Assembly: GCF_005503695.1 (NCBI RefSeq)
Contig: NZ_SCMU01000003.1
Location: 186,001 to 250,000, forward strand
Origin: Sphingopyxis sp. 2PD
GTDB lineage: Bacteria > Pseudomonadota > Alphaproteobacteria > Sphingomonadales > Sphingomonadaceae
Length of the DNA: 64,000 nucleotides
Direction of reading: 5' to 3'
In this document: positions 35,031 through 44,680 of the stretch, piece after piece
Layout of the letters: every line of letters begins with the position of its first letter
Position numbering within the stretch: position 1 is the first letter of the stretch
Notes under the pieces: model-generated
Told to the model about the DNA's origin: nothing
The model's input: the letters and a program-made list of their open reading frames with translations, nothing else
Database searches by the model: none
Position numbers and translations under genes: made by a program

Positions 35031-35741
35031 TTATCGCGCCCGCCACCCGGCATCGCGCGCGACACGCTCGGCGTCCGCGTCGAGCGGATCGCCTGCCATC
35101 ATCGTCGCCACCATCGCGGCGAGTTCGCCCGAGCCCGCCTGACGATAGTCGGTGGGCGCCCGTCCGCGCTGTGTCCGTTCCAGTTGCCAGCGGCCACCCT
35201 CGCGGCAACCGATCCCGTCGACCGTGGCGCTTTCGAAACTGCGGCAGTAACGCCCCTCACCGTCGCGAAAGCTGAGCCCGATCCGGACCGCAGCGTCTGC
35301 GGGCTGGTTCGACGCCAGCCGGGTATCGAGCGCGTCGGCCAGCGAACCCGATGCCACGAGCACGCCCTTGTCGCTCGCGACATCGGCGGCAGGCAGCCAG
35401 GGCCGCAATCCGATTGTCAGCCCGAGCACCAGCGACGCGGCGAGCGCGCCCCAGTGCATGGGTTCAAAGCGCGCCCGCTTCGCCGCGCGACGATCCGCCA
35501 AACTGGTATCGACCCCGTCCGCGTTGTCCGCCCCGACGAGCAAAGCGCGCAGCCGTTCGGGTACCGCCTCCTCGACAACCGGCGCATAATGCGCGGTCAG
35601 CTGCGCCTTCAGCGCGCGGTGGCGCGCGATTTCTGCCGCCAGCGCGGGATCCCGAACCGCTTCGCGTTCGATGCGCCGCGCGGTCAGATCGTCGAGTTCG
35701 CCGTCGACAAAGGCCGCAACAATGTCCCGATCCACGCTCAT
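35031..35741 (-). CDS. Anti-sigma factor, membrane-bound
   Basis: The 236-residue product has an N-terminal cytoplasmic anti-sigma helical part (DIVAAFVDGELDDLTARRIEREA), one membrane segment at about 107-127 (WGALAASLVLGLTIGL) and a periplasmic C-terminal domain with SFRDGEGRYCRSFESA and two cysteines. There is no HxxxCxxC zinc motif in the N-terminal part. It overlaps the sigma gene by four bases, the standard sigma/anti-sigma operon. Confidence 0.82.
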   Translation of the reverse strand: MSVDRDIVAAFVDGELDDLTARRIEREAVRDPALAAEIARHRALKAQLTAHYAPVVEEAVPERLRALLVGADNADGVDTSLADRRAAKRARFEPMHWGALAASLVLGLTIGLRPWLPAADVASDKGVLVASGSLADALDTRLASNQPADAAVRIGLSFRDGEGRYCRSFESATVDGIGCREGGRWQLERTQRGRAPTDYRQAGSGELAAMVATMMAGDPLDADAERVARDAGWRAR

Positions 35742-36226
35742 GCCGCCTCTCCCAGATAATGCATCAGCGTCTCGCGCCCACGCGCCAGCCGCGACGTGAC
35801 GGTGCCGATTGGCACGTCCAAAATGTCGGCCGCCTCGCGATAGGCATAGCCTTCGACGAGAACGAGCATCACGACCTCGCGCTGGTCGTCGGGCAGCCGC
35901 GCCATTGCGCCGTCGACATCGCCGCGCAGCGCGCCCGCCTCGACCTCGGCAGCGCCGTCGCCGACAACCTGCGTTGCGGCATCGTCGATCGCACTATGGA
36001 CACCGCGGCGGCCCGCAGCGCGGCGCTCGTCGATCCAAATATTTCGGGTGATGCGATACATCCAGCTATCCAGTCTTGTTCCCTCTTGCCACTGATCGCG
36101 CGACTTCAGCGCGCGTTCGATGGCGGCCTGGCATAAATCGTCGGCGTCGCTCGGGTGGCGCGCCAGACCGCGCGCGAACCGGCGCAAGCGCGGTAATAAT
36201 GCCACCAGTTCCTCTTCGAAGCGCAT
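35738..36226 (-). CDS. ECF RNA polymerase sigma factor
   Basis: The 162-residue product has the sigma-70 region 2 (LARHPSDADDLCQAAIERAL, SWMYRITRNIWIDERRA) and region 4 (LPDDQREVVMLVLVEGYAYREAADILDVPIGTVTSRLARGRE). Its own upstream region carries GGAAG-N17-CGTT on the minus strand, so autoregulation is likely. The same motif precedes the two neighbouring secreted-protein genes. The length and form are those of a typical ECF sigma without extra domains. Confidence 0.92.
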   Translation of the reverse strand: MRFEEELVALLPRLRRFARGLARHPSDADDLCQAAIERALKSRDQWQEGTRLDSWMYRITRNIWIDERRAAGRRGVHSAIDDAATQVVGDGAAEVEAGALRGDVDGAMARLPDDQREVVMLVLVEGYAYREAADILDVPIGTVTSRLARGRETLMHYLGEAA

Positions 36227-36249
36227 AATCGCCTTTTCGTTGTGCCTGG

Positions 36250-36281
36250 GGAAGAAACGACGCCACCCTATCGTTTCTTCC
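36250..36281. promoter_or_regulatory. Overlapping divergent ECF-type promoters (GGAAG-N17-CGTT on both strands)
   Basis: A perfect inverted repeat ggaagaaacga / tcgtttcttcc places GGAAG-N17-CGTT on each strand. Plus strand: GGAAG at 36,250 and CGTT at 36,272, reading into the protease gene 75 bases on. Minus strand: GGAAG at 36,281 and CGTT ending at 36,256, reading into the sigma gene 30 bases on. The form resembles known ECF promoters (GGAAC-N16/17-CGTT in EcfG). Confidence 0.7.
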
Positions 36282-36349
36282 GCGACATGCTAAATTTTTC
36301 GAAGCCACCCCAGGCTCGTCTTCGCGCCCGGGATGAACAAGGAAGCACC

Positions 36350-37615
36350 GTGCGACATTCGACAGCCCTGATCCTGAGCCTGATGTTGGCGATGAGCGGT
36401 CCGCACGCCCGCGCGCAGATCGCGGTGCCGTCGGTACAAATCCCCGACGCGGCGCGGACATTGCCGTCGCTGCCGGGAATTGGCACCGAGCCACTGATTG
36501 CGGTCAGGGATACGCTGGCGCAGGCGCGCATCGAACGGATTGCCGACCTGCTGCGTGATCGCCGCGACCGGATCGAGCCCGATCGCAATGGCCAACCCGC
36601 AGTGCGCGGGGTGCTGATCGCCACGGGCATCGACGACGCCATGGTCGCCCGCGCCCGCGACGGCGGCTTCGCGCTGATCGACCGCGAGCGGATTGCCGGG
36701 CTCGATCTCGACATCGCGCGCTTTGCGGTTCCCGAAGGGCAAAGCCTGACGCGCGCGCAAAAGCGGCTTGCCAAACGCCTGCCCGCTGCGGCGATCGACG
36801 TCGACCATCTCTATTTCACGAGCGGCCCGGGCGGCGCGCTGCCCGTCGCCGCGCTAGCGACCGCCAGCGCTTCGTCATCGGGCGCCCCGCTCGGGCTGAT
36901 CGACGGCGGCGTCGCCGCGCACCCGTCGGTCGCTGGGCGCGTCGAACAGCGCGGGTTTGCGCGCGGCGCGCCCGTACCAAGCCGCCACGGCACCGCGGTT
37001 GCCTCGCTGCTCATCGGGACCGGCACGGTGCGCGGCGCCGCGCCGGGGCGGCGGCTCGCTGCGGCCGATGTCTATGGCGGCGACCCGGCGGGCGGCAATG
37101 CCAGCGCCATCGCCCGCGCGCTGGGCTGGCTTGCCGAGCGCGGTGTCGGAGTCACGACGATCAGCCTTGTCGGTCCCGACAACAAGCTGCTCGCGATTGC
37201 GGTATCGCGCGCGCAGCAGCGCGGGATGCTGATCGTGGCGGCGGTGGGCAACGACGGCCCCGCCGCGCCGCCCGCCTATCCGGCCTCGTACAAGGGCGTC
37301 TTCGCGGTGACCGGCGTCGACGCCCGCTACCGCGCGCTGCCCGAGGCAGGCCGCGCGCTGCACGTCGATTTCGCCGCCCCCGGCGCCGATGTCCACGCCG
37401 CCACCGGCGCCGCCACCAGCGATCGGCTGCGCGGAACATCCTTCGCCGCACCGCTGGTCGCCGGGCGACTGGCGCAGCATTATGCCGCGCCCGCGACGGA
37501 CCGGATCGCCGCCGCGGTGACCGCGCTGGTGCTCGAAGCGCGCGATCTGGGCAAGAAGGGCCGCGACAAAATCTATGGCCACGGCCTGATCTGCAGCAGC
37601 TGCGGCGGCCGCTGA
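36350..37615 (+). CDS. S8 (subtilisin-like) serine protease, exported
   Basis: The 421-residue product starts at a GTG at 36,350 preceded by AAGGAA, with a signal peptide (about 1-24, LILSLMLAMSGPHARAQ). The triad is visible: Asp in LGLIDGGVAAHPSV, His in SRHGTAVASLLIG and Ser in LRGTSFAAPLVAG, with the oxyanion Asn in AAVGNDGPAAPPAYP. A propeptide-like region precedes the catalytic domain. It is divergent from the ECF sigma operon and shares its promoter motif, so it is probably a regulon member. Its C-terminal end contains CSSCGGR. Confidence 0.88.
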   Translation: MRHSTALILSLMLAMSGPHARAQIAVPSVQIPDAARTLPSLPGIGTEPLIAVRDTLAQARIERIADLLRDRRDRIEPDRNGQPAVRGVLIATGIDDAMVARARDGGFALIDRERIAGLDLDIARFAVPEGQSLTRAQKRLAKRLPAAAIDVDHLYFTSGPGGALPVAALATASASSSGAPLGLIDGGVAAHPSVAGRVEQRGFARGAPVPSRHGTAVASLLIGTGTVRGAAPGRRLAAADVYGGDPAGGNASAIARALGWLAERGVGVTTISLVGPDNKLLAIAVSRAQQRGMLIVAAVGNDGPAAPPAYPASYKGVFAVTGVDARYRALPEAGRALHVDFAAPGADVHAATGAATSDRLRGTSFAAPLVAGRLAQHYAAPATDRIAAAVTALVLEARDLGKKGRDKIYGHGLICSSCGGR

Positions 37616-37634
37616 CCCCGACCCGAAATTTTTC

Positions 37635-37660
37635 GGAAGAAATTCGCAAGCGCCATCGTT
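37635..37660 (+). promoter_or_regulatory. ECF-type promoter (GGAAG-N17-CGTT)
   Basis: GGAAG at 37,635 and CGTT at 37,657 are separated by exactly 17 bases and continue the GGAAGAAA-N13-TCGTT pattern of the motif pair at 36,250-36,281. It lies 49 bases upstream of the Gly/Ser-rich secreted-protein gene. Confidence 0.65.
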
Positions 37661-37708: not shown

Positions 37709-38569
37709 ATGGCAAAACATATCTTCGTCTCGGCCCTCGCAATCGCTGCGTCGGCCATGACCCTTTCGGTCCCGGCGTCGGCGCAGCTGCTTGGCGGCAG
37801 CGGCGGGCTGAGCGGCGGCTTGGGCGGCACGCTGAGCGGGACGCTTGGCAATCCGACGGGCCCGATCGGCGGCACGCTGGGCTCGGCGGGCGAGCTCGCC
37901 GGTTCGGGCCGCGGCGATGCGCAGGTCGATCGCCGTTCGGGCCGCGTACAGGGCAAGGGCAGCGCCGACGCGAACGGTCGGGGTTCGGCGGGCGGCAATG
38001 GCGACCTGCTGGGCAACAGCATCGGCGGCAATGCTAATGGGTCGGGCAGCGCCGCGGGTAGCGGCAGCGTCGATGCGCAGGCCGTGGGAACCGATTTTGT
38101 GGGGCAGACTGCGCGCGGCGCCGTCGGCACTGCCCGGGGCACGGCTTCGACCGTAACCGGCACCGCGCAGGGTGCGGTCGGGACTGTCCGCGATCGAACC
38201 GGCGGCGCGTTGTCGAACGTCTCAGGCAGCGCCAGCGGCGCCGGATCGGCCGCGGGCAGCTTCCAGGGCAGCCTCGGCCAACTCGCCGCCGCGGGCAGCG
38301 GCGCGGCGAGCGGCAACGGCATGTTCGCGGTGGAGCCGGGAATGCCCGTGACCGACGCGCGCGGCAAGGTGATCGGCCATGTCCAGGAGCTGCGCCAGAC
38401 GGGTCGCGGCGTGGTCGAAGCGGTGACTGTCGAAGTCGGCAACCGCGTTGCGACGCTGCCCGCCGCGAGCTTTGCCGGATCGGGCGACGTGCTGGTCACG
38501 GGAATGACCAAGGGCCGGCTGAAAAAGACCGCCGAACAGCAGCGTAGCGGGCAGCAACCGGCCGAATAA
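37709..38569 (+). CDS. Gly/Ser-rich secreted protein with PRC-barrel-like C-terminus
   Basis: From the ATG at 37,709 the product is 286 residues: a signal peptide (about 1-25, ending VPASA), then about 175 residues rich in Gly, Ser, Ala and Thr with short near-repeats (GGSGGLSGGLGG, GSGSAAGSGS). The C-terminal 75-residue domain (MPVTDARGKVIGHVQELR, RVATLPAASFAGSGDVLVTG) resembles a PRC barrel. It could be a cell-surface or envelope protein. An ECF-type promoter and a strong terminator frame it as a single-gene unit. Confidence 0.78.
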   Translation: MAKHIFVSALAIAASAMTLSVPASAQLLGGSGGLSGGLGGTLSGTLGNPTGPIGGTLGSAGELAGSGRGDAQVDRRSGRVQGKGSADANGRGSAGGNGDLLGNSIGGNANGSGSAAGSGSVDAQAVGTDFVGQTARGAVGTARGTASTVTGTAQGAVGTVRDRTGGALSNVSGSASGAGSAAGSFQGSLGQLAAAGSGAASGNGMFAVEPGMPVTDARGKVIGHVQELRQTGRGVVEAVTVEVGNRVATLPAASFAGSGDVLVTGMTKGRLKKTAEQQRSGQQPAE

Positions 38570-38675: not shown

Positions 38676-38730
38676 TGGTGCCCCTGGCCGGACTCGAACC
38701 AGCACTCCTTGCGGAACCGCATTTTGAGTG
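38676..38730 (-). other. 3' half of tRNA-Leu(CAA): attachment site of the integrated element
   Basis: On the minus strand the segment reads as the 3' part of a tRNA-Leu. It has anticodon loop CTCAAAA (anticodon CAA), stem strand TGCGG, long variable arm TTCCGCAAGGAGT, T arm GCTGG-TTCGAGT-CCGGC, acceptor strand CAGGGGC, discriminator A and CCA. The 5' strand of the anticodon stem, the D arm and the 5' acceptor strand are absent to the right. Site-specific recombination into tRNA 3' ends leaves exactly this remnant at one end of an element, with the intact tRNA at the other. Confidence 0.8.
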
Positions 38731-38954
38731 GGACGAGGCTTCCGTATGGCATTGATAAACGGTTATATTTTGTCAGGCAAGTGAAAACTGTGTAAGACTT
38801 TGTGTAAGTTTTAGGCCAAATGCACCCATGCTAGGGGGCGCCAAAAGGAAGTGCGAGACGGTGACGATCTGCTGATGCCTGAGTAGGCTGATCGCTCGCC
38901 ATCCCGTTTCTGTCTTTCCGGTTTTGAAATGGCCACCCTACGATCCGTCCGTCG
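38731..38954. other. Left end of the element, non-coding
   Basis: No gene is seen between the attachment site and the first element gene. The stretch is AT-richer than its flanks. It contains the direct repeat TGTGTAAG at 38,789-38,796 and 38,801-38,808, which might be integrase or excisionase arm sites. Confidence 0.5.
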
Positions 38955-39956
38955 TCAAACGCTGTCCGAACGAGCGATGATCGACACAACAGCCGTCGTT
39001 GATGCGGTTGCTTCAACGCAGAGTGCAGCCAGTAGTCGAGTAGCGGTTCGGCGATGTTGGAGGTTCAGCGCCAACGCCAGCGATGCTCGATGGTGCGCCC
39101 GCACTTCCTTGTTGCTCGCGCCGGGAAAGACGTGCCCGATATAGGCTTCAAGCATTCGGTTCGCGTCTGTGTCGCTTGGCCGCACGCCATCTAACGATTC
39201 GTGGATAGTGGGATCATAAACTGCCTGCGCCAGCGATATGATGACCTCGCGGCAAAGTAGCCCGATGGCTTGGCAATCTTCTTCGGCGGAAGCCGATTCA
39301 AGTTGCGTTCGCGCCTTTGACAAGGCGCGGTCAACTCGCTCCCATCCCGTCACCTCGCGAGGCTCAGATGGCAATGACGATCGTTTTGAAAGGGTTTCGA
39401 TCGCGTGACTGAATAGCTGGCGAACGTAAAAGCGCCGATCCTTGTATTGAGGCAGTTCCGCTCCCCAATGGCGATACCATGCCCACAAATCGACGTGCGG
39501 GTTCTCGTATGTGACGCCTTCCGGGATTGCTTCTCGGATTCGGACTTCCCGCGCCCTGTAGTAGTCGTCAACGTCCTGTATGCGTGCGCCTCCGGTCGCA
39601 ACGTCGATCATCATCCCGCGATGGATCAGCAATTCCGAAAGCAGCGCAACTGTGCCGGATGCGTGAGCACCGTCCAGCGTTTCGACGCGAATATCATCGT
39701 GTTGTTTGCTGACCTGCTGACCGCTCGAAACAGCTTCGGCAATCCGCTTGCGATCCTGTTGCGGAAGTGAGCGCAACGCATCCGCTATCGGCACTGGCGC
39801 GCGCACGATGATTGCTTCGTCTTCTAAGTCAGAAAACCAATCCAGTGCAGTTTCGAGCTGTTCAACCGACGCCTGGCAATGTCGTAGCAGCATCGACAAA
39901 TCGAATCGCTGAAGGCTTTCCAGAAACTTGCGCGCACTATCCATTGCGTTCGACAT
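38955..39956 (-). CDS. Uncharacterised 333-residue cytoplasmic protein
   Basis: The product is soluble, with no signal peptide or membrane segment. The N-terminal part is helical (RKFLESLQRFDLSMLL). A central block VDLWAWYRHWGAELPQYKDRRFYVRQLF follows, and the C-terminal helical domain has LLCREVIISLAQAVYDP, GVRPSDTDANRMLEAYIGHVFPG and LNLQHRRTATRLLAALCVEATAST. I do not recognise a named family with confidence. Its place beside the attachment site and its composition, less GC-rich than core genes, suggest accessory cargo; abortive-infection-like defence is one possibility but only a guess. Confidence 0.7.
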   Translation of the reverse strand: MSNAMDSARKFLESLQRFDLSMLLRHCQASVEQLETALDWFSDLEDEAIIVRAPVPIADALRSLPQQDRKRIAEAVSSGQQVSKQHDDIRVETLDGAHASGTVALLSELLIHRGMMIDVATGGARIQDVDDYYRAREVRIREAIPEGVTYENPHVDLWAWYRHWGAELPQYKDRRFYVRQLFSHAIETLSKRSSLPSEPREVTGWERVDRALSKARTQLESASAEEDCQAIGLLCREVIISLAQAVYDPTIHESLDGVRPSDTDANRMLEAYIGHVFPGASNKEVRAHHRASLALALNLQHRRTATRLLAALCVEATASTTAVVSIIARSDSV

Positions 39957-40090
39957 ACAAGGCTAATCAGCGTTGCGATACTTTCAAAGGATCGCGTTCA
40001 AATCAGCCACGGCATTGGTTCAGCACGGCCCAGTGGCCACTGACAAGCATCCGCCATACGGGATCAAGGCCGTTGCCCAAGTGAGATCTC

Positions 40091-40552
40091 CTAGATTTTG
40101 GGAAGGCGTGGAACGACCGTTGACGATAGAATGATGGACGTATCTGCCGATGCAAATGGCTGAAAACGATCAATCACAGTCTCAAGCTCCTGCACATCGC
40201 TAACCATGACCTTCGCCAGAAAACAATCTTCCCCTGTTACGCGATCCGCTTCGACGACCTCAGGCGTGTCGATCAGCATCTGTGCAACCCGTTTCACTTC
40301 ACCGGGCATGGCGCGCAGTCGGACGTGAGCGGCGATGCCAAGGCCGAAGACTTTGGAATCGACCAAAACCGTATATCCCCGGATAGCGCCCGCATCTTCC
40401 AGCTTGTGAATGCGCTCGGTTACGCTGGGGCTGGACAAGCCGATCTGTTCCGCAAGCTCCCGAACGGTCATGCGGCCATTCCCGGTCAACGCGGTGATAA
40501 TCGCTCGATCAGTCCCATCGAGTGGCCGAGTTACATAACGGCTTCGGTTCAT
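40091..40552 (-). CDS. Lrp/AsnC family transcriptional regulator
   Basis: The 153-residue product has an N-terminal winged helix (LDGTDRAIITALTGNGRMTVRELAEQIGLSSPSVTERIHKLEDAGAI) and a C-terminal RAM ligand-binding domain (VVEADRVTGEDCFLAKVMVSDVQELE). It likely responds to an amino acid. It is divergent from the type IV secretion operon with about 270 bases between, so it may control that operon or itself; this is inference from position. Confidence 0.92.
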   Translation of the reverse strand: MNRSRYVTRPLDGTDRAIITALTGNGRMTVRELAEQIGLSSPSVTERIHKLEDAGAIRGYTVLVDSKVFGLGIAAHVRLRAMPGEVKRVAQMLIDTPEVVEADRVTGEDCFLAKVMVSDVQELETVIDRFQPFASADTSIILSSTVVPRLPKI

Positions 40553-40824
40553 AGTTCGCCTCTAGCTGGTTGACACCGGCGAGGCCTTGGGATTGCAAAG
40601 GCAAATGTTCGATTTCGCCTTACTTATTCAAACTCAGATCAAGAATCGGCATGACTGCGAACCCACCCAGCGATGAACACATAGTCCGCAGGATCAAGAT
40701 TGAAGGTCAAAGGCTGCCACAGGGTTCGATAGATAAGTCGAAAAGCCCGTTGAGCCTTTTTCAATCTATAGCTGACTGATCAGCCCGCCCGCTATCAATA
40801 GTCCCACAGTCAGGCAGAGTATTC
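40553..40824. promoter_or_regulatory. Divergent intergenic region between lrp-like and virB1
   Basis: The 272 bases separate two divergent transcription units and must hold their promoters. The stretch is locally AT-rich (40,610-40,780). No clear operator could be assigned. A 69-residue reading frame inside it has no supporting features. Confidence 0.45.
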
Positions 40825-41583
40825 ATGCCTGACAGAGAAAGTTGGGAGGAACGGCGCAGTGAGCAGCCAAGCGCACCTGAGATCAATTGGGGATATGGTC
40901 TGATGGCCTACTCTGCGGCTGCCATACTTGCATTGGCGTCGCAATGCGCACCAACAGTCGCACCCGAAACGGTGTTAGCCATCGTTCAGACCGAAAGCAG
41001 CGGCGAGCAATTCGCCCTCAATGTAAACGGTGGGAGGCAACCCGCCCGCCAAACCAGCGCCGCCGATGCAGCAGCAACAGCTCGGCGGTATGTAGCAGCC
41101 GGATATTCTGTCGATCTCGGACTTGGCCAAATCAACTCGCGCAACATGCGCTGGCTTGGCCTGACCTGGGAGACCATATTCGACCCCTGCACCAATGTCG
41201 CGGCTCTCGGCCGCGTACTCACCACGAACTACAATGCGGCGAAAGCCGGACGCGATCCACAAGCTGCCCTTCGGGTCGCACTCTCGATGTATAACACGGG
41301 AAGCCAGACGCGCGGTTTTCGGAATGGCTATGTTGCCAAGGTCATTGGCAACGCTGGCGTCGCGGACACTGGCATATCATTCGCTCAGGCCTTGCCGCCA
41401 GTTGCCGTTGCCCCACCGGCAAACGGCGATCTGCGCGGACTGCTGACCTCAGAAAACACAGTGCCACAGGCACTAGAAGCACAGCCCCGCCCGGCTCCGC
41501 CACCCAAGTGGAACGTCTTTGAGCGTGCTGCTTACGACCGCGAAACTCAAATTCTCGCCGGAAACGAGAGGAGCAGCATATGA
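40825..41583 (+). CDS. virB1: VirB1-like lytic transglycosylase
   Basis: The 252-residue product has an SLT/lysozyme-like domain with the catalytic Glu in VLAIVQTESSGEQFALNVNGG, then SVDLGLGQINSRNM and YNTGSQTRGFRNGYVAKV. It opens peptidoglycan for assembly of the secretion channel. It is first in the virB operon. The ATG of virB2 overlaps its stop by four bases. Confidence 0.9.
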   Translation: MPDRESWEERRSEQPSAPEINWGYGLMAYSAAAILALASQCAPTVAPETVLAIVQTESSGEQFALNVNGGRQPARQTSAADAAATARRYVAAGYSVDLGLGQINSRNMRWLGLTWETIFDPCTNVAALGRVLTTNYNAAKAGRDPQAALRVALSMYNTGSQTRGFRNGYVAKVIGNAGVADTGISFAQALPPVAVAPPANGDLRGLLTSENTVPQALEAQPRPAPPPKWNVFERAAYDRETQILAGNERSSI

Positions 41584-41945
41584 ATATAATCCTGAAAGTT
41601 GGGCGTGGTGTCGGAAACTGGCGGGCAAGCATTGCAGCCAGATTCAATGCCATGCCCAAATCGCGACAAAGCGCCATAGTGTGGGGCGCGGCATTAACTG
41701 CGGCGACCATTATATCGTTTGCAAACCCCGATCCTGCCTATGCGCAGAATCTGGAGAGTTTCGCGAGCAAGGTGCGCGGCCTGCTCTCATCGACGCTGCT
41801 GCGAACGCTCGCGGTGATCGCCGTCATCGTCACGGGCTTGCTCTGGTTTACGGGTCGCGCTTCGACAGCGGTGCTGGTGACGGTGATTATCGGGATTGCG
41901 ATTGTCTTCTCGGCGGACTCAATCGTCGGCATCATCGCGGGATAA
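41580..41945 (+). CDS. virB2: VirB2-like pilin
   Basis: The 121-residue product has a basic leader, a first hydrophobic segment ending in a signal-peptidase-like AYAQ, and two further membrane segments (LRTLAVIAVIVTGLLWFTG and VLVTVIIGIAIVFSADSIVGI). This is the TrbC/VirB2 layout. The mature protein would be the major pilus subunit. Confidence 0.9.
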   Translation: MNIILKVGRGVGNWRASIAARFNAMPKSRQSAIVWGAALTAATIISFANPDPAYAQNLESFASKVRGLLSSTLLRTLAVIAVIVTGLLWFTGRASTAVLVTVIIGIAIVFSADSIVGIIAG

Positions 41946-41949
41946 TGCG

Positions 41950-42294
41950 ATGTCGGACGAAACCGAAATCCTGACCAAGAACGAGCTGTTTCTTGCGGTG
42001 ACGCGCCCCGCACTTTGGGCGGGCATCCCGATCGAGGCGGCGGTGCTATTGCTGATCTCAAGCGCGTCGGTGCTGATATGGAGCAACAGCCCCGTTTATG
42101 CCGCGCTGGTTGTCGCTTTCGGATATTCGATCTCGCGGTTGATCGTGCGGCACGACGTCAACGCATTCCGCCTGCTGTTCCTGTGGGGGCGGACAAAGCT
42201 CGGCAATCGCAATCGGGCGTTCTGGGGCGGTAGCAGCTATTCGCCGCTTCCACTGGCCGGACTTCGCCGGAAGGGCTTTGGCCGTCATGGCTAA
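41950..42294 (+). CDS. virB3: VirB3-like inner-membrane protein
   Basis: The 114-residue product begins MSDETEILTKNELFLAVTRPALWAGI. Two membrane segments (about 25-45 and 48-68) are followed by RHDVNAFRLLFLWGRTK, typical of VirB3. It lies between virB2 and virB4, overlapping the latter by eight bases. Confidence 0.9.
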   Translation: MSDETEILTKNELFLAVTRPALWAGIPIEAAVLLLISSASVLIWSNSPVYAALVVAFGYSISRLIVRHDVNAFRLLFLWGRTKLGNRNRAFWGGSSYSPLPLAGLRRKGFGRHG

Positions 42295-44680
42295 GCTGCT
42301 CCCCTCGACAAATGCAGTGCCACTCAAGGTGGCGCAGCGCGAGGCCGACCCAGCCAAATTCCTGCCTTATGCCCGGCATTTGAACGAAGACATGGTGGCG
42401 CTGGATTCCGGCGACATCATGCTGACATTCGAGCTGCAAGGCCGTGCGTTCGAGACCGCCGACGTCCGCGACCTCAACGACTGGCATACCAAGCTCAACG
42501 GGCTGTTCCGCAACCTCCATGACGAGCGGCTGTCAATCTGGACACATCTGATCAGGATGCGGGTCGATCAATATCCAGGCGGCACGTTCAAATCCGGTTT
42601 TGCCGCCGATCTCGACCGCGCCTATTTCGGGCGGATCAACCGGGAGCGGATGTTCATCAACCGCTTCTTCGTCACGTTGGTAATCCGTCCAGGTGCCACG
42701 GGCGGCGACAAGATTATCCAGTTGTTCAAACGTCGCGTTTCCAAAGAGGTGCGGCAAGGACCGATGATCGACGAGGCGCTTGTCGAACTGCTTGACGACA
42801 AAGCGCGCGATTTCGAGAAATTGATGGCGCGCTGCGAACCGCGCCGCTGCTCGATCTACGAGCATCGCGGCTTGATGTTTTCGGAAACGATGGAAGTGGC
42901 CGACATGGTGATGACCGGTCGCCATCGCCGCGTCCCCGTTGTGCGCGGGCATCTCGGCGGTGCGCTCTACCGCTCGCGCACCATCTTTGGCGCAGAAACA
43001 ATCGAAGTGCGAGATGCCGATGCTTCGGCATTCGGCGGGATCTTCGGTATCCGCGAATATCCCGCCCAAACCACGCCGCGCCAATTCGAGGCGCTGCTAT
43101 CGGTCGATTTCGGGTTCGTGCTGACGCAGAGTTTCACTTTCCTCGGGCGGGCTGCTGCGACCGAAAAATTCCGGCTGCGCATGACCCAGATGGAAAATGC
43201 AGGCGACAGGGCCGTGAGCCAAGCTGATGCGCTGATCGACGCGGGCGATGATCTGATGTCGAACCGCTTTGTGCTGGGCGATCACCACTTCACGCTCGCG
43301 GTTTATGCCGACAGCGTGAAGGGTTTGCGGGATCATATGTCGGTCGCACGGGCGGCGCTGGCCGACACTGGCATGGTGGCAGCGCGCGAAGGGGCGGCTC
43401 TTGAAGCAGCCTATTGGTCGCAGCTCGTCGGCAATTTCGCATGGCGCGCCCGGCCCGCACCGATCACCTCGCTAAATTTCGCGGCCTTTTCGCCGTTCCA
43501 TACTTTTCCGGCAGGAAGTGCCAGTGGCAATCATTGGGGCGATGCGATTGCCTTGCTGAAAACCAATGCCCGCAGCCCCTATTTCTTCAATTTCCACAAG
43601 GGCGATCTCGGTCATACCCTCATCATTGGGCCATCGGGCGGCGGCAAGACAGTGTTGCTCAACTTCCTGATGGCGCAGACAGAAAAGACCGGCGCACGGC
43701 AGATATTCATCGACAAGGATCGCGGCGCGCAAATTTTCGTGCAGGCCAGCGGCGGCACCTATCTCGCGCTCCATAACGGCGTCCCGACCGGCTTCTCCCC
43801 GCTCAAGGCGCTCGCCAATCGCGCAGAGGACAAGAGTTTCCTATCGCTGTTCATCCGCCAGCTCGTCCGCGCGGACGGCAAACCGATTTCAGTTCAGGAA
43901 GAACGACTGATCGAGGACGGCATCAATGCCGTGATGAAGCTCGACGTTGCTGATCGTTCGCTTAGCGCGCTGCGCTCGATGCTTGGCATGAAGGATTCCA
44001 GCGGCGTCGGTGCACGGCTTGAGAAATGGACGTCTGAAGGATCCCTTGGCTGGGTGTTCGACAATCCGGCGGATTCAATGACGCTCAATGCCCGGTTCAT
44101 CGGCTTCGACATGACCGACTTTCTCGACAATGCCGACATTCGCACGCCGGTCATGTTGTATCTGTTCCACCGCATCGACCAGCTTCTGACTGGCGAGCGG
44201 ATGGTGATCTGCATCGACGAATTCTGGAAAGCGCTTGGCGACGAGGCGTTCCGCCGCTTCGCCCAGGACGGCCTCAAAACCTACCGCAAGCGTAACGCCG
44301 TGCTGGTGTTCGCCACGCAGTCACCTGCCGACGCGCTCAAGAGCGACATCAGCCATTCGATTCTCGAACAGGTCGCGACCAAGATCATGTTGCCCAACCC
44401 GTTCGGGGCGCGGCGCGATTATGTCGAAGGGTTCGCACTGTCCGAAGCCGAATTCAAACTGGTGCGCGAAGAACTTGCGCCCGAAAGCCACAAGTTTCTG
44501 GTCAAGCAAGGCCATGACAGCGTGGTGGTCGAACTCGATCTGGCCGGGCTGGATGACGAACTGGCGGTCCTGTCGGGCCGCGCGGAAACCACCGCCGTTG
44601 CTGACGAGATTATTGCCGAGGTGGGGAACGATCCCGCTGTCTGGCTGCCCCTCTTCCACCGTCGGAGGCGTCCTAGCTGA
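42287..44680 (+). CDS. virB4: VirB4-family ATPase
   Basis: The 797-residue product has the CagE/TrbE/VirB N-terminal domain and a C-terminal ATPase with Walker A IGPSGGGKTVLLNF near residue 447 and Walker B VICIDEFWKAL. It powers assembly and substrate transfer through the channel at the inner membrane. The ATG at 42,287 is chosen over the in-frame TTG at 42,278. Confidence 0.95.
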   Translation: MAKLLPSTNAVPLKVAQREADPAKFLPYARHLNEDMVALDSGDIMLTFELQGRAFETADVRDLNDWHTKLNGLFRNLHDERLSIWTHLIRMRVDQYPGGTFKSGFAADLDRAYFGRINRERMFINRFFVTLVIRPGATGGDKIIQLFKRRVSKEVRQGPMIDEALVELLDDKARDFEKLMARCEPRRCSIYEHRGLMFSETMEVADMVMTGRHRRVPVVRGHLGGALYRSRTIFGAETIEVRDADASAFGGIFGIREYPAQTTPRQFEALLSVDFGFVLTQSFTFLGRAAATEKFRLRMTQMENAGDRAVSQADALIDAGDDLMSNRFVLGDHHFTLAVYADSVKGLRDHMSVARAALADTGMVAAREGAALEAAYWSQLVGNFAWRARPAPITSLNFAAFSPFHTFPAGSASGNHWGDAIALLKTNARSPYFFNFHKGDLGHTLIIGPSGGGKTVLLNFLMAQTEKTGARQIFIDKDRGAQIFVQASGGTYLALHNGVPTGFSPLKALANRAEDKSFLSLFIRQLVRADGKPISVQEERLIEDGINAVMKLDVADRSLSALRSMLGMKDSSGVGARLEKWTSEGSLGWVFDNPADSMTLNARFIGFDMTDFLDNADIRTPVMLYLFHRIDQLLTGERMVICIDEFWKALGDEAFRRFAQDGLKTYRKRNAVLVFATQSPADALKSDISHSILEQVATKIMLPNPFGARRDYVEGFALSEAEFKLVREELAPESHKFLVKQGHDSVVVELDLAGLDDELAVLSGRAETTAVADEIIAEVGNDPAVWLPLFHRRRRPS

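What the first reader, a model, noticed from the sequence alone, without database searches (positions are those of the whole stretch)
36250..37660. Three identical ECF-type promoter motifs define a candidate sigma regulon
Seen directly: GGAAGAAA-N13-TCGTT (that is, GGAAG-N17-CGTT) occurs three times. It lies on the minus strand upstream of the ECF sigma gene, on the plus strand upstream of the S8 protease, and on the plus strand upstream of the Gly/Ser-rich secreted-protein gene. The first two overlap perfectly as an inverted repeat. Known: ECF promoters of the EcfG type are GGAAC-N16/17-CGTT and ECF sigmas are usually autoregulated. Inferred: this sigma controls itself, its anti-sigma, an exported subtilisin-like protease and a secreted repeat protein, which might form a small envelope-stress or surface-processing system, with the protease as a candidate for processing the secreted protein.
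Basis: partly seen in the sequence, partly recalled or inferred. Interest (0 to 1): 0.75.

Follow-up and report, generated by a model that had tools for sequence, protein, structure and literature searches.

The report
Two-way sigma-factor switch with secreted protease
A bacterial stress-type sigma factor and a secreted protease gene sit back to back on one perfectly mirrored 32-base promoter, and the same code word marks two further exported-protein genes; this small circuit has been kept across dozens of sphingomonad genera, which makes it a ready test case for how one promoter fires in two directions.

Summary
The window's genome (a Sphingopyxis) has only one more exact copy, 47 bp upstream of a 112-aa exported helical protein (P5): a fourth predicted target. 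In the 24 congeners with the sigma the promoters recur in place. In the 11 without it, protease and Gly-rich gene are absent, and the -35 of the surviving P5 promoter is decayed in three of four near-complete genomes. The dyad recurs in 70 of 76 loci sampled across the family. All promoters of the module switch together from GGAA to GGAT outside Sphingopyxis, alongside recognition-helix changes in the sigma. I conclude that this sigma reads these promoters. The layout sigma-anti-sigma/divergent S8 protease is known: Sinorhizobium RpoE6 (group ECF26), where the protease is a mapped target. It is not EcfG. New are the reciprocal dyad promoter (each -35 nested in the other's -10, so one polymerase must choose a direction), the added targets and the specificity switch. 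'Protease processes the Gly-rich protein' is not supported beyond co-regulation. Nothing has been tested by transcript mapping.

The parts
36250..36281 (.). 32-bp perfect dyad, reciprocal divergent ECF promoter (11-bp arms, 10-bp centre)
   Evidence: both halves found in 38 Sphingopyxis loci (one of them with a mismatch) and in 70/76 family loci
36250..36275 (+). promoter of the S8 protease: -35 GGAAGAAA, -10 TCGTT; 74 nt to the GTG; start predicted near 36284
   Evidence: start position by analogy with SMa0142 (PMC6180224)
36256..36281 (-). promoter of the sigma/anti-sigma operon; 29 nt to the ATG; start predicted near 36247
37635..37660 (+). single-direction promoter of the Gly/Ser-rich protein gene; 48 nt to the ATG
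35738..36226 (-). ECF sigma factor, 162 aa, 49% identical to Sinorhizobium RpoE6
35031..35741 (-). membrane anti-sigma factor, 236 aa, overlapping the sigma gene; invariant periplasmic Cys166 and Cys179
36350..37615 (+). exported S8 (subtilisin-like) protease, 421 aa, triad D185/H213/S364 by motif, conserved C-terminal CxxC
37709..38569 (+). exported Gly/Ser-rich protein, 286 aa, with a weak C-terminal PRC-barrel match

Best explanation
This is an ECF26/RpoE6-like sigma-anti-sigma module of sphingomonads. Shown by sequence: one sigma-specific code (GGAAGAAA-N13-TCGTT in Sphingopyxis, GGAT[GT]AAA-N14-CGTT elsewhere in the family) marks the sigma/anti-sigma operon, the divergent S8 protease, a Gly/Ser-rich exported protein and, in many genomes, a 112-aa exported helical protein. 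The first two share a 32-bp dyad in which each -35 is nested in the other's -10. Inferred: at rest the single-pass anti-sigma holds the sigma at the membrane. An envelope signal acting on its periplasmic domain, perhaps through the invariant Cys pair, frees it. Sigma-polymerase then binds the dyad in either orientation, one at a time. One orientation gives positive feedback plus more anti-sigma, the other gives the protease, and the single sites switch on the exported proteins. The protease's substrate is unknown.
For: Exact motifs and dyad, 0 expected. Same promoters in all 24 congeners with the sigma, with many different spacers. Protease and Gly-rich gene absent in all 11 congeners without the sigma. 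Motif-only genome scans led to P5 and, in S. bauzanensis, to a second Gly-rich paralogue with the motif 46 bp upstream. P5 promoters: -35 GG lost in 3 of 4 near-complete sigma-less genomes versus 1 of 23 with sigma (Fisher about 0.005 by my arithmetic). -35 base 4 is A at nearly every Sphingopyxis site and T at all four promoters of 10 outgroup loci, tracking sigma residue 148, equivalent to sigma-E F175 that contacts the -35 element (PMC6713349). Dyad in 70/76 family loci. Sinorhizobium RpoE6 drives the homologous protease from a mapped GGAATA...CGTT promoter (PMC6180224).
Against: No transcript starts or sigma-mutant data exist for this locus in what I could read. Sigma-less G007 (99% complete) keeps a perfect P5 promoter, so another sigma may read that site or the loss is recent. 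Only 30 of 75 family loci have the exact motif after the protease gene. The GGAA/GGAT change amounts to few evolutionary events, and other sigma residues co-vary as strongly. Signal, release mechanism and protease substrate are inferred.
Confidence: 0.88

Rival explanations
1. The 32-bp palindrome is an operator for a dimeric DNA-binding regulator, not a pair of sigma promoters.
For: It is a perfect inverted repeat between divergent genes, the classic look of an operator.
Against: The Gly-rich and P5 sites hold only one directed half with fixed 13-nt spacing and no inverted partner. The word matches ECF -35/-10 logic and the mapped RpoE6 promoters (PMC6180224). The arms track changes in the sigma's recognition helix.
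Confidence: 0.04
2. The general stress sigma EcfG, not this sigma, is the main reader of the motif.
For: EcfG reads GGAAC-N16-CGTT in Sphingopyxis granuli (PMC7083833), close in form. RpoE2 and RpoE6 regulons overlap in Sinorhizobium (PMC6180224). P5 with an intact motif persists in sigma-less G007.
Against: The fifth -35 base and the spacing differ. Presence and decay of the motif follow this sigma, although second-rank sigma hits of the EcfG/PhyR kind are present in sigma-less genomes too. The whole set switches to GGAT with this sigma.
Confidence: 0.07
3. The S8 protease cleaves the anti-sigma factor, so the divergent pair is a self-amplifying release switch rather than an output.
For: The protease is the most constant partner of sigma/anti-sigma, even in Sinorhizobium and other ECF26-like loci without the Gly-rich protein. 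Both are predicted to reach the periplasm.
Against: No cleavage evidence. The site-1 proteases of anti-sigmas that I know of (DegS, PrsW, signal peptidase) are not S8 enzymes (my knowledge; DegS in PMC8103513). Microarrays failed to define a role for RpoE6 (PMC6180224).
Confidence: 0.25
4. The S8 protease matures or degrades the Gly/Ser-rich protein.
For: Adjacent, co-regulated and co-lost in Sphingopyxis; Gly-rich homologues follow the protease in most family loci.
Against: The protease is kept next to the sigma where no Gly-rich homologue is found; no cleavage site was sought or identified.
Confidence: 0.2

Closest known systems
Sinorhizobium meliloti RpoE6-EcfR6 with S8 protease SMa0142 (ECF group 26; PMC6180224)
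   Same: Sigma 49%, anti-sigma 28%, protease 37% identical; divergent protease gene; protease is a sigma target with a mapped start; anti-sigma with the same two periplasmic cysteines
   Different: No dyad: the rpoE6 promoter there has no ECF motif (PMC6180224). -35 is GGAATA. No Gly-rich gene or P5 homologue found at the locus.
Bidirectional promoters of E. coli/Salmonella (Warman, Grainger; PMC12825309, PMC10268837)
   Same: Pseudo-symmetric DNA that can bind polymerase in two mutually exclusive orientations
   Different: Those rest on the near-symmetric sigma-70 -10 element with starts usually 18 bp apart. Here -35 and -10 are reciprocally nested, starts are predicted about 37 bp apart, and a dedicated ECF sigma is used.
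EcfG/NepR/PhyR general stress response (Sphingopyxis granuli, PMC7083833)
   Same: Alphaproteobacterial ECF, GGAA...CGTT-type promoter, autoregulated
   Different: Cytoplasmic NepR partner switch, GGAAC-N16, large regulon; that system sits elsewhere in this genome

Membership tests
ECF26 (RpoE6 type) | ECF sigma with regions 2 and 4 only, closest to RpoE6 | tested here: met
   Pfam r2 and r4; 49% to RpoE6 over 155 aa versus about 34% to the genome's own EcfG-type hits; the formal ECF-group HMMs were not available
ECF26 (RpoE6 type) | Single-pass anti-sigma with N-terminal anti-sigma domain and periplasmic C-terminal domain, encoded just downstream | tested here: met
   Genes overlap; helical N-terminus, TM-like helix 97-112 and a C-terminal alpha/beta domain in the model (pLDDT 87); weak zf-HC2/RseA_N/NepR hits among members
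ECF26 (RpoE6 type) | Divergent serine protease gene under sigma control | tested here: met
   Synteny and promoter in all Sphingopyxis loci; identity of the Sinorhizobium locus shown by a 39/39 match to the published SMa0142 promoter. Control itself inferred from the promoter
ECF26 (RpoE6 type) | Promoter consensus -35 GGAATA / -10 GT | tested here: inconclusive
   Core GGAA..A and CGT shared; fifth base G in most sites, T in some; GGAT in related genera. Distant ECF26-like loci have GGAATAA upstream of sigma
EcfG (ECF15) | Adjacent NepR/PhyR | tested here: not met
   PhyR, NepR and two EcfG-like genes lie together on contig C5; the window sigma has a membrane anti-sigma
EcfG (ECF15) | -35 GGAAC with N16 | tested here: not met
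   GGAAG-N17-CGTT here
Bidirectional promoter | Transcripts start in both directions from one shared, mutually exclusive site | not testable with these tools
   Sequence geometry only; needs transcript mapping
Bidirectional promoter (sigma-70 type) | Symmetry of the -10 element with starts 7-25 bp apart | tested here: not met
   -35 nested in the opposing -10; predicted starts about 37 bp apart (sequence)

The most novel reading that the evidence does not exclude
A dedicated, purpose-kept bidirectional ECF promoter: a single sigma-polymerase chooses between two mutually exclusive orientations on a 32-bp dyad, hard-wiring the ratio of sigma/anti-sigma to protease, and selection has maintained this exact geometry across some 40 sphingomonad genera while the recognition code and the sigma's DNA-reading helix changed together.
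Probability: 0.6. Interest if true: 0.65.

Novelty: new variant of a known kind. Interest (0 to 1): 0.5.

Why it matters
[quoted passage not shown] Here evolution offers dozens of natural versions of one, driven by a single accessory sigma factor with about four target promoters. That makes polymerase competition, feedback and promoter-sigma co-evolution directly testable. It also gives a first defined candidate regulon to a sigma-anti-sigma-protease system that is widespread in sphingomonads and for which I found no study.

Tried and rejected
The short motif alone (GGAAG-N17-CGTT with 1 mismatch; GGAAC-N16-CGTT for EcfG) is not above chance or control, so genome-wide regulon prediction with it was dropped. 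One-mismatch hits of the long motif in the own genome (L005-L007) lie in coding sequence or give no clear gene start, so they were rejected as targets. Homology of P5 to the convergent gene beside Sinorhizobium EcfR6 was tested and not found. P5 fold: a helical hairpin, no significant PDB match. Anti-sigma fold search: no significant match. The papers read on Sphingopyxis, Sphingomonas and Novosphingobium showed no passage on this locus.

Full report
Observation. The three sites are exactly as stated, and none is expected by chance. Two of them form one perfect 32-bp dyad, GGAAGAAACGA-N10-TCGTTTCTTCC (36250-36281), unique in the window. The shorter form of the motif is not informative by itself. 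The spacing to genes fits promoters: 29 nt from the -10 to the sigma ATG, 74 nt to the protease GTG and 48 nt to the Gly-rich ATG (sequence).

Genome-wide. The window lies in a 3.58-Mb Sphingopyxis genome (nearest named relative S. microcysteis, sigma 96% identical). The genome holds only one further exact motif. It is 47 bp upstream of a 112-aa protein with a signal-peptide-like start, P5. Orthologues of P5 in congeners carry the motif 36-49 bp upstream of the ATG. In several Sphingopyxis and in Sphingorhabdus/Parasphingorhabdus, P5 sits next to the anti-sigma gene, tying it physically to the module. In S. bauzanensis the motif alone led to a second copy of the Gly-rich protein elsewhere in the genome.

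Co-occurrence. Among 35 congeners, 24 have the sigma (81% identity or more), and all of these have the divergent protease, the Gly-rich gene and the motifs in place. Of the 11 without it, none has protease or Gly-rich orthologues. Six keep P5. In three of the four near-complete ones the -35 has lost its first G (CGAAGACA, CGAAGAAA, CGGACATA) while the -10 remains. In 22 of 23 sigma-bearing genomes with a scorable P5 promoter the GG is intact. G007 is an unexplained exception with an intact site.

Wider family. 77 of 250 family genomes, in 41 of 91 genera, have the sigma at E <= 1e-40. At 76 loci fetched from outside Sphingopyxis, 70 have both halves of the dyad in the same 32-bp register. A search for inverted repeats without a sequence model finds it at most of them, though a 9-11 of 11 match is only slightly above the best of ten shuffles per locus; the shared words and register carry the weight. 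Of 177 exact motif hits in 538 kb, about 140 are dyad halves and 30 lie just after the protease gene. The six without a dyad are among the most distant homologues. Still more distant loci have GGAATAA...CGT upstream of sigma, the published ECF26 word (PMC6180224).

Concerted change. In 38 Sphingopyxis loci, base 4 of the -35 is A on the sigma side in all, on the protease side in all but three, and at every Gly-rich and P5 site. In ten outgroup loci it is T at all the promoters found. Within the sigma's recognition helix the two fixed differences between the groups are at 143 (V/L) and 148 (A/V). Over 129 loci, residue 148 is V in most GGAT loci and A or S in nearly all GGAA loci. Position 148 corresponds to sigma-E F175, which contacts T'-33 (PMC6713349; the correspondence is my own alignment). 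Caveat: few independent events, and linker residues co-vary as well. In the sigma tree the GGAA and GGAT groups each need one change.

What it is. Sigma, anti-sigma and protease are homologous to the RpoE6-EcfR6-SMa0142 system of Sinorhizobium meliloti, group ECF26. Its published protease promoter is found letter for letter in the plasmid locus that I compared. That paper states that divergence of the sigma gene from a serine protease is widely conserved in ECF26, so the basic layout is known. It also gives the expected distance from CGTT to the start (9 nt). The genome's EcfG system is separate.

Mechanism. The dyad nests each -35 in the other's -10, so two polymerases cannot bind at once (inference from geometry). 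Predicted starts lie about 37 bp apart. This differs from the sigma-70 bidirectional promoters described by Warman and colleagues (PMC12825309, PMC10268837). The Gly-rich and P5 sites have only one half, which argues against a dimeric operator. An A/T tract (AAAAATTTAGCAT) lies upstream of the sigma-side -35 in all 37 Sphingopyxis loci scored and could bias orientation (inference). The anti-sigma model has C166 and C179 on neighbouring strands of a hairpin in the domain after the TM-like helix. Both are invariant down to EcfR6, so a disulfide-linked or redox-sensitive sensor is possible (inference). The Gly-rich protein has a weak PRC-barrel C-terminus. P5 is a helical hairpin of unknown function.

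Verdict. The regulon is well supported by comparative evidence and untested by experiment.

Noticed in passing
window 38690-44680: Just after the Gly-rich gene there is a tRNA-like 3' fragment (not called as a tRNA by ARAGORN), followed by conjugation-type genes (lytic transglycosylase-like 40825-41583, VirB4-like ATPase 42278-44680, by eye). This looks like an integrative element next to the module.
   Followed up: partly
L050/L167 (Sphingopyxis sp. H053): About 262 bp inserted between the sigma gene and the dyad; the dyad keeps its distance to the protease gene, so the sigma leader would be about 290 nt.
   Followed up: no
L185 (Sphingopyxis sp. JAI108): Second copy of the sigma (79%) and anti-sigma (52%) with altered -10 and -35 in the dyad and no protease found in the stretch held: a duplicated, apparently decaying module.
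   Followed up: no
G007, locus L130: Complete-looking genome without the sigma keeps P5 with a perfect promoter motif; unexplained.
   Followed up: partly
L146 (G029): The stretch matching the Gly-rich protein contains an internal TAA in this close relative according to the search output.
   Followed up: no
window 36282-36305: Conserved A/T tract upstream of the sigma-side -35 in all 37 Sphingopyxis loci scored, UP-element-like.
   Followed up: partly
window 36350-37615: The S8 protease ends in an invariant C-x2-C pair (C415, C418), unusual for a subtilase; possible disulfide or metal site.
   Followed up: no
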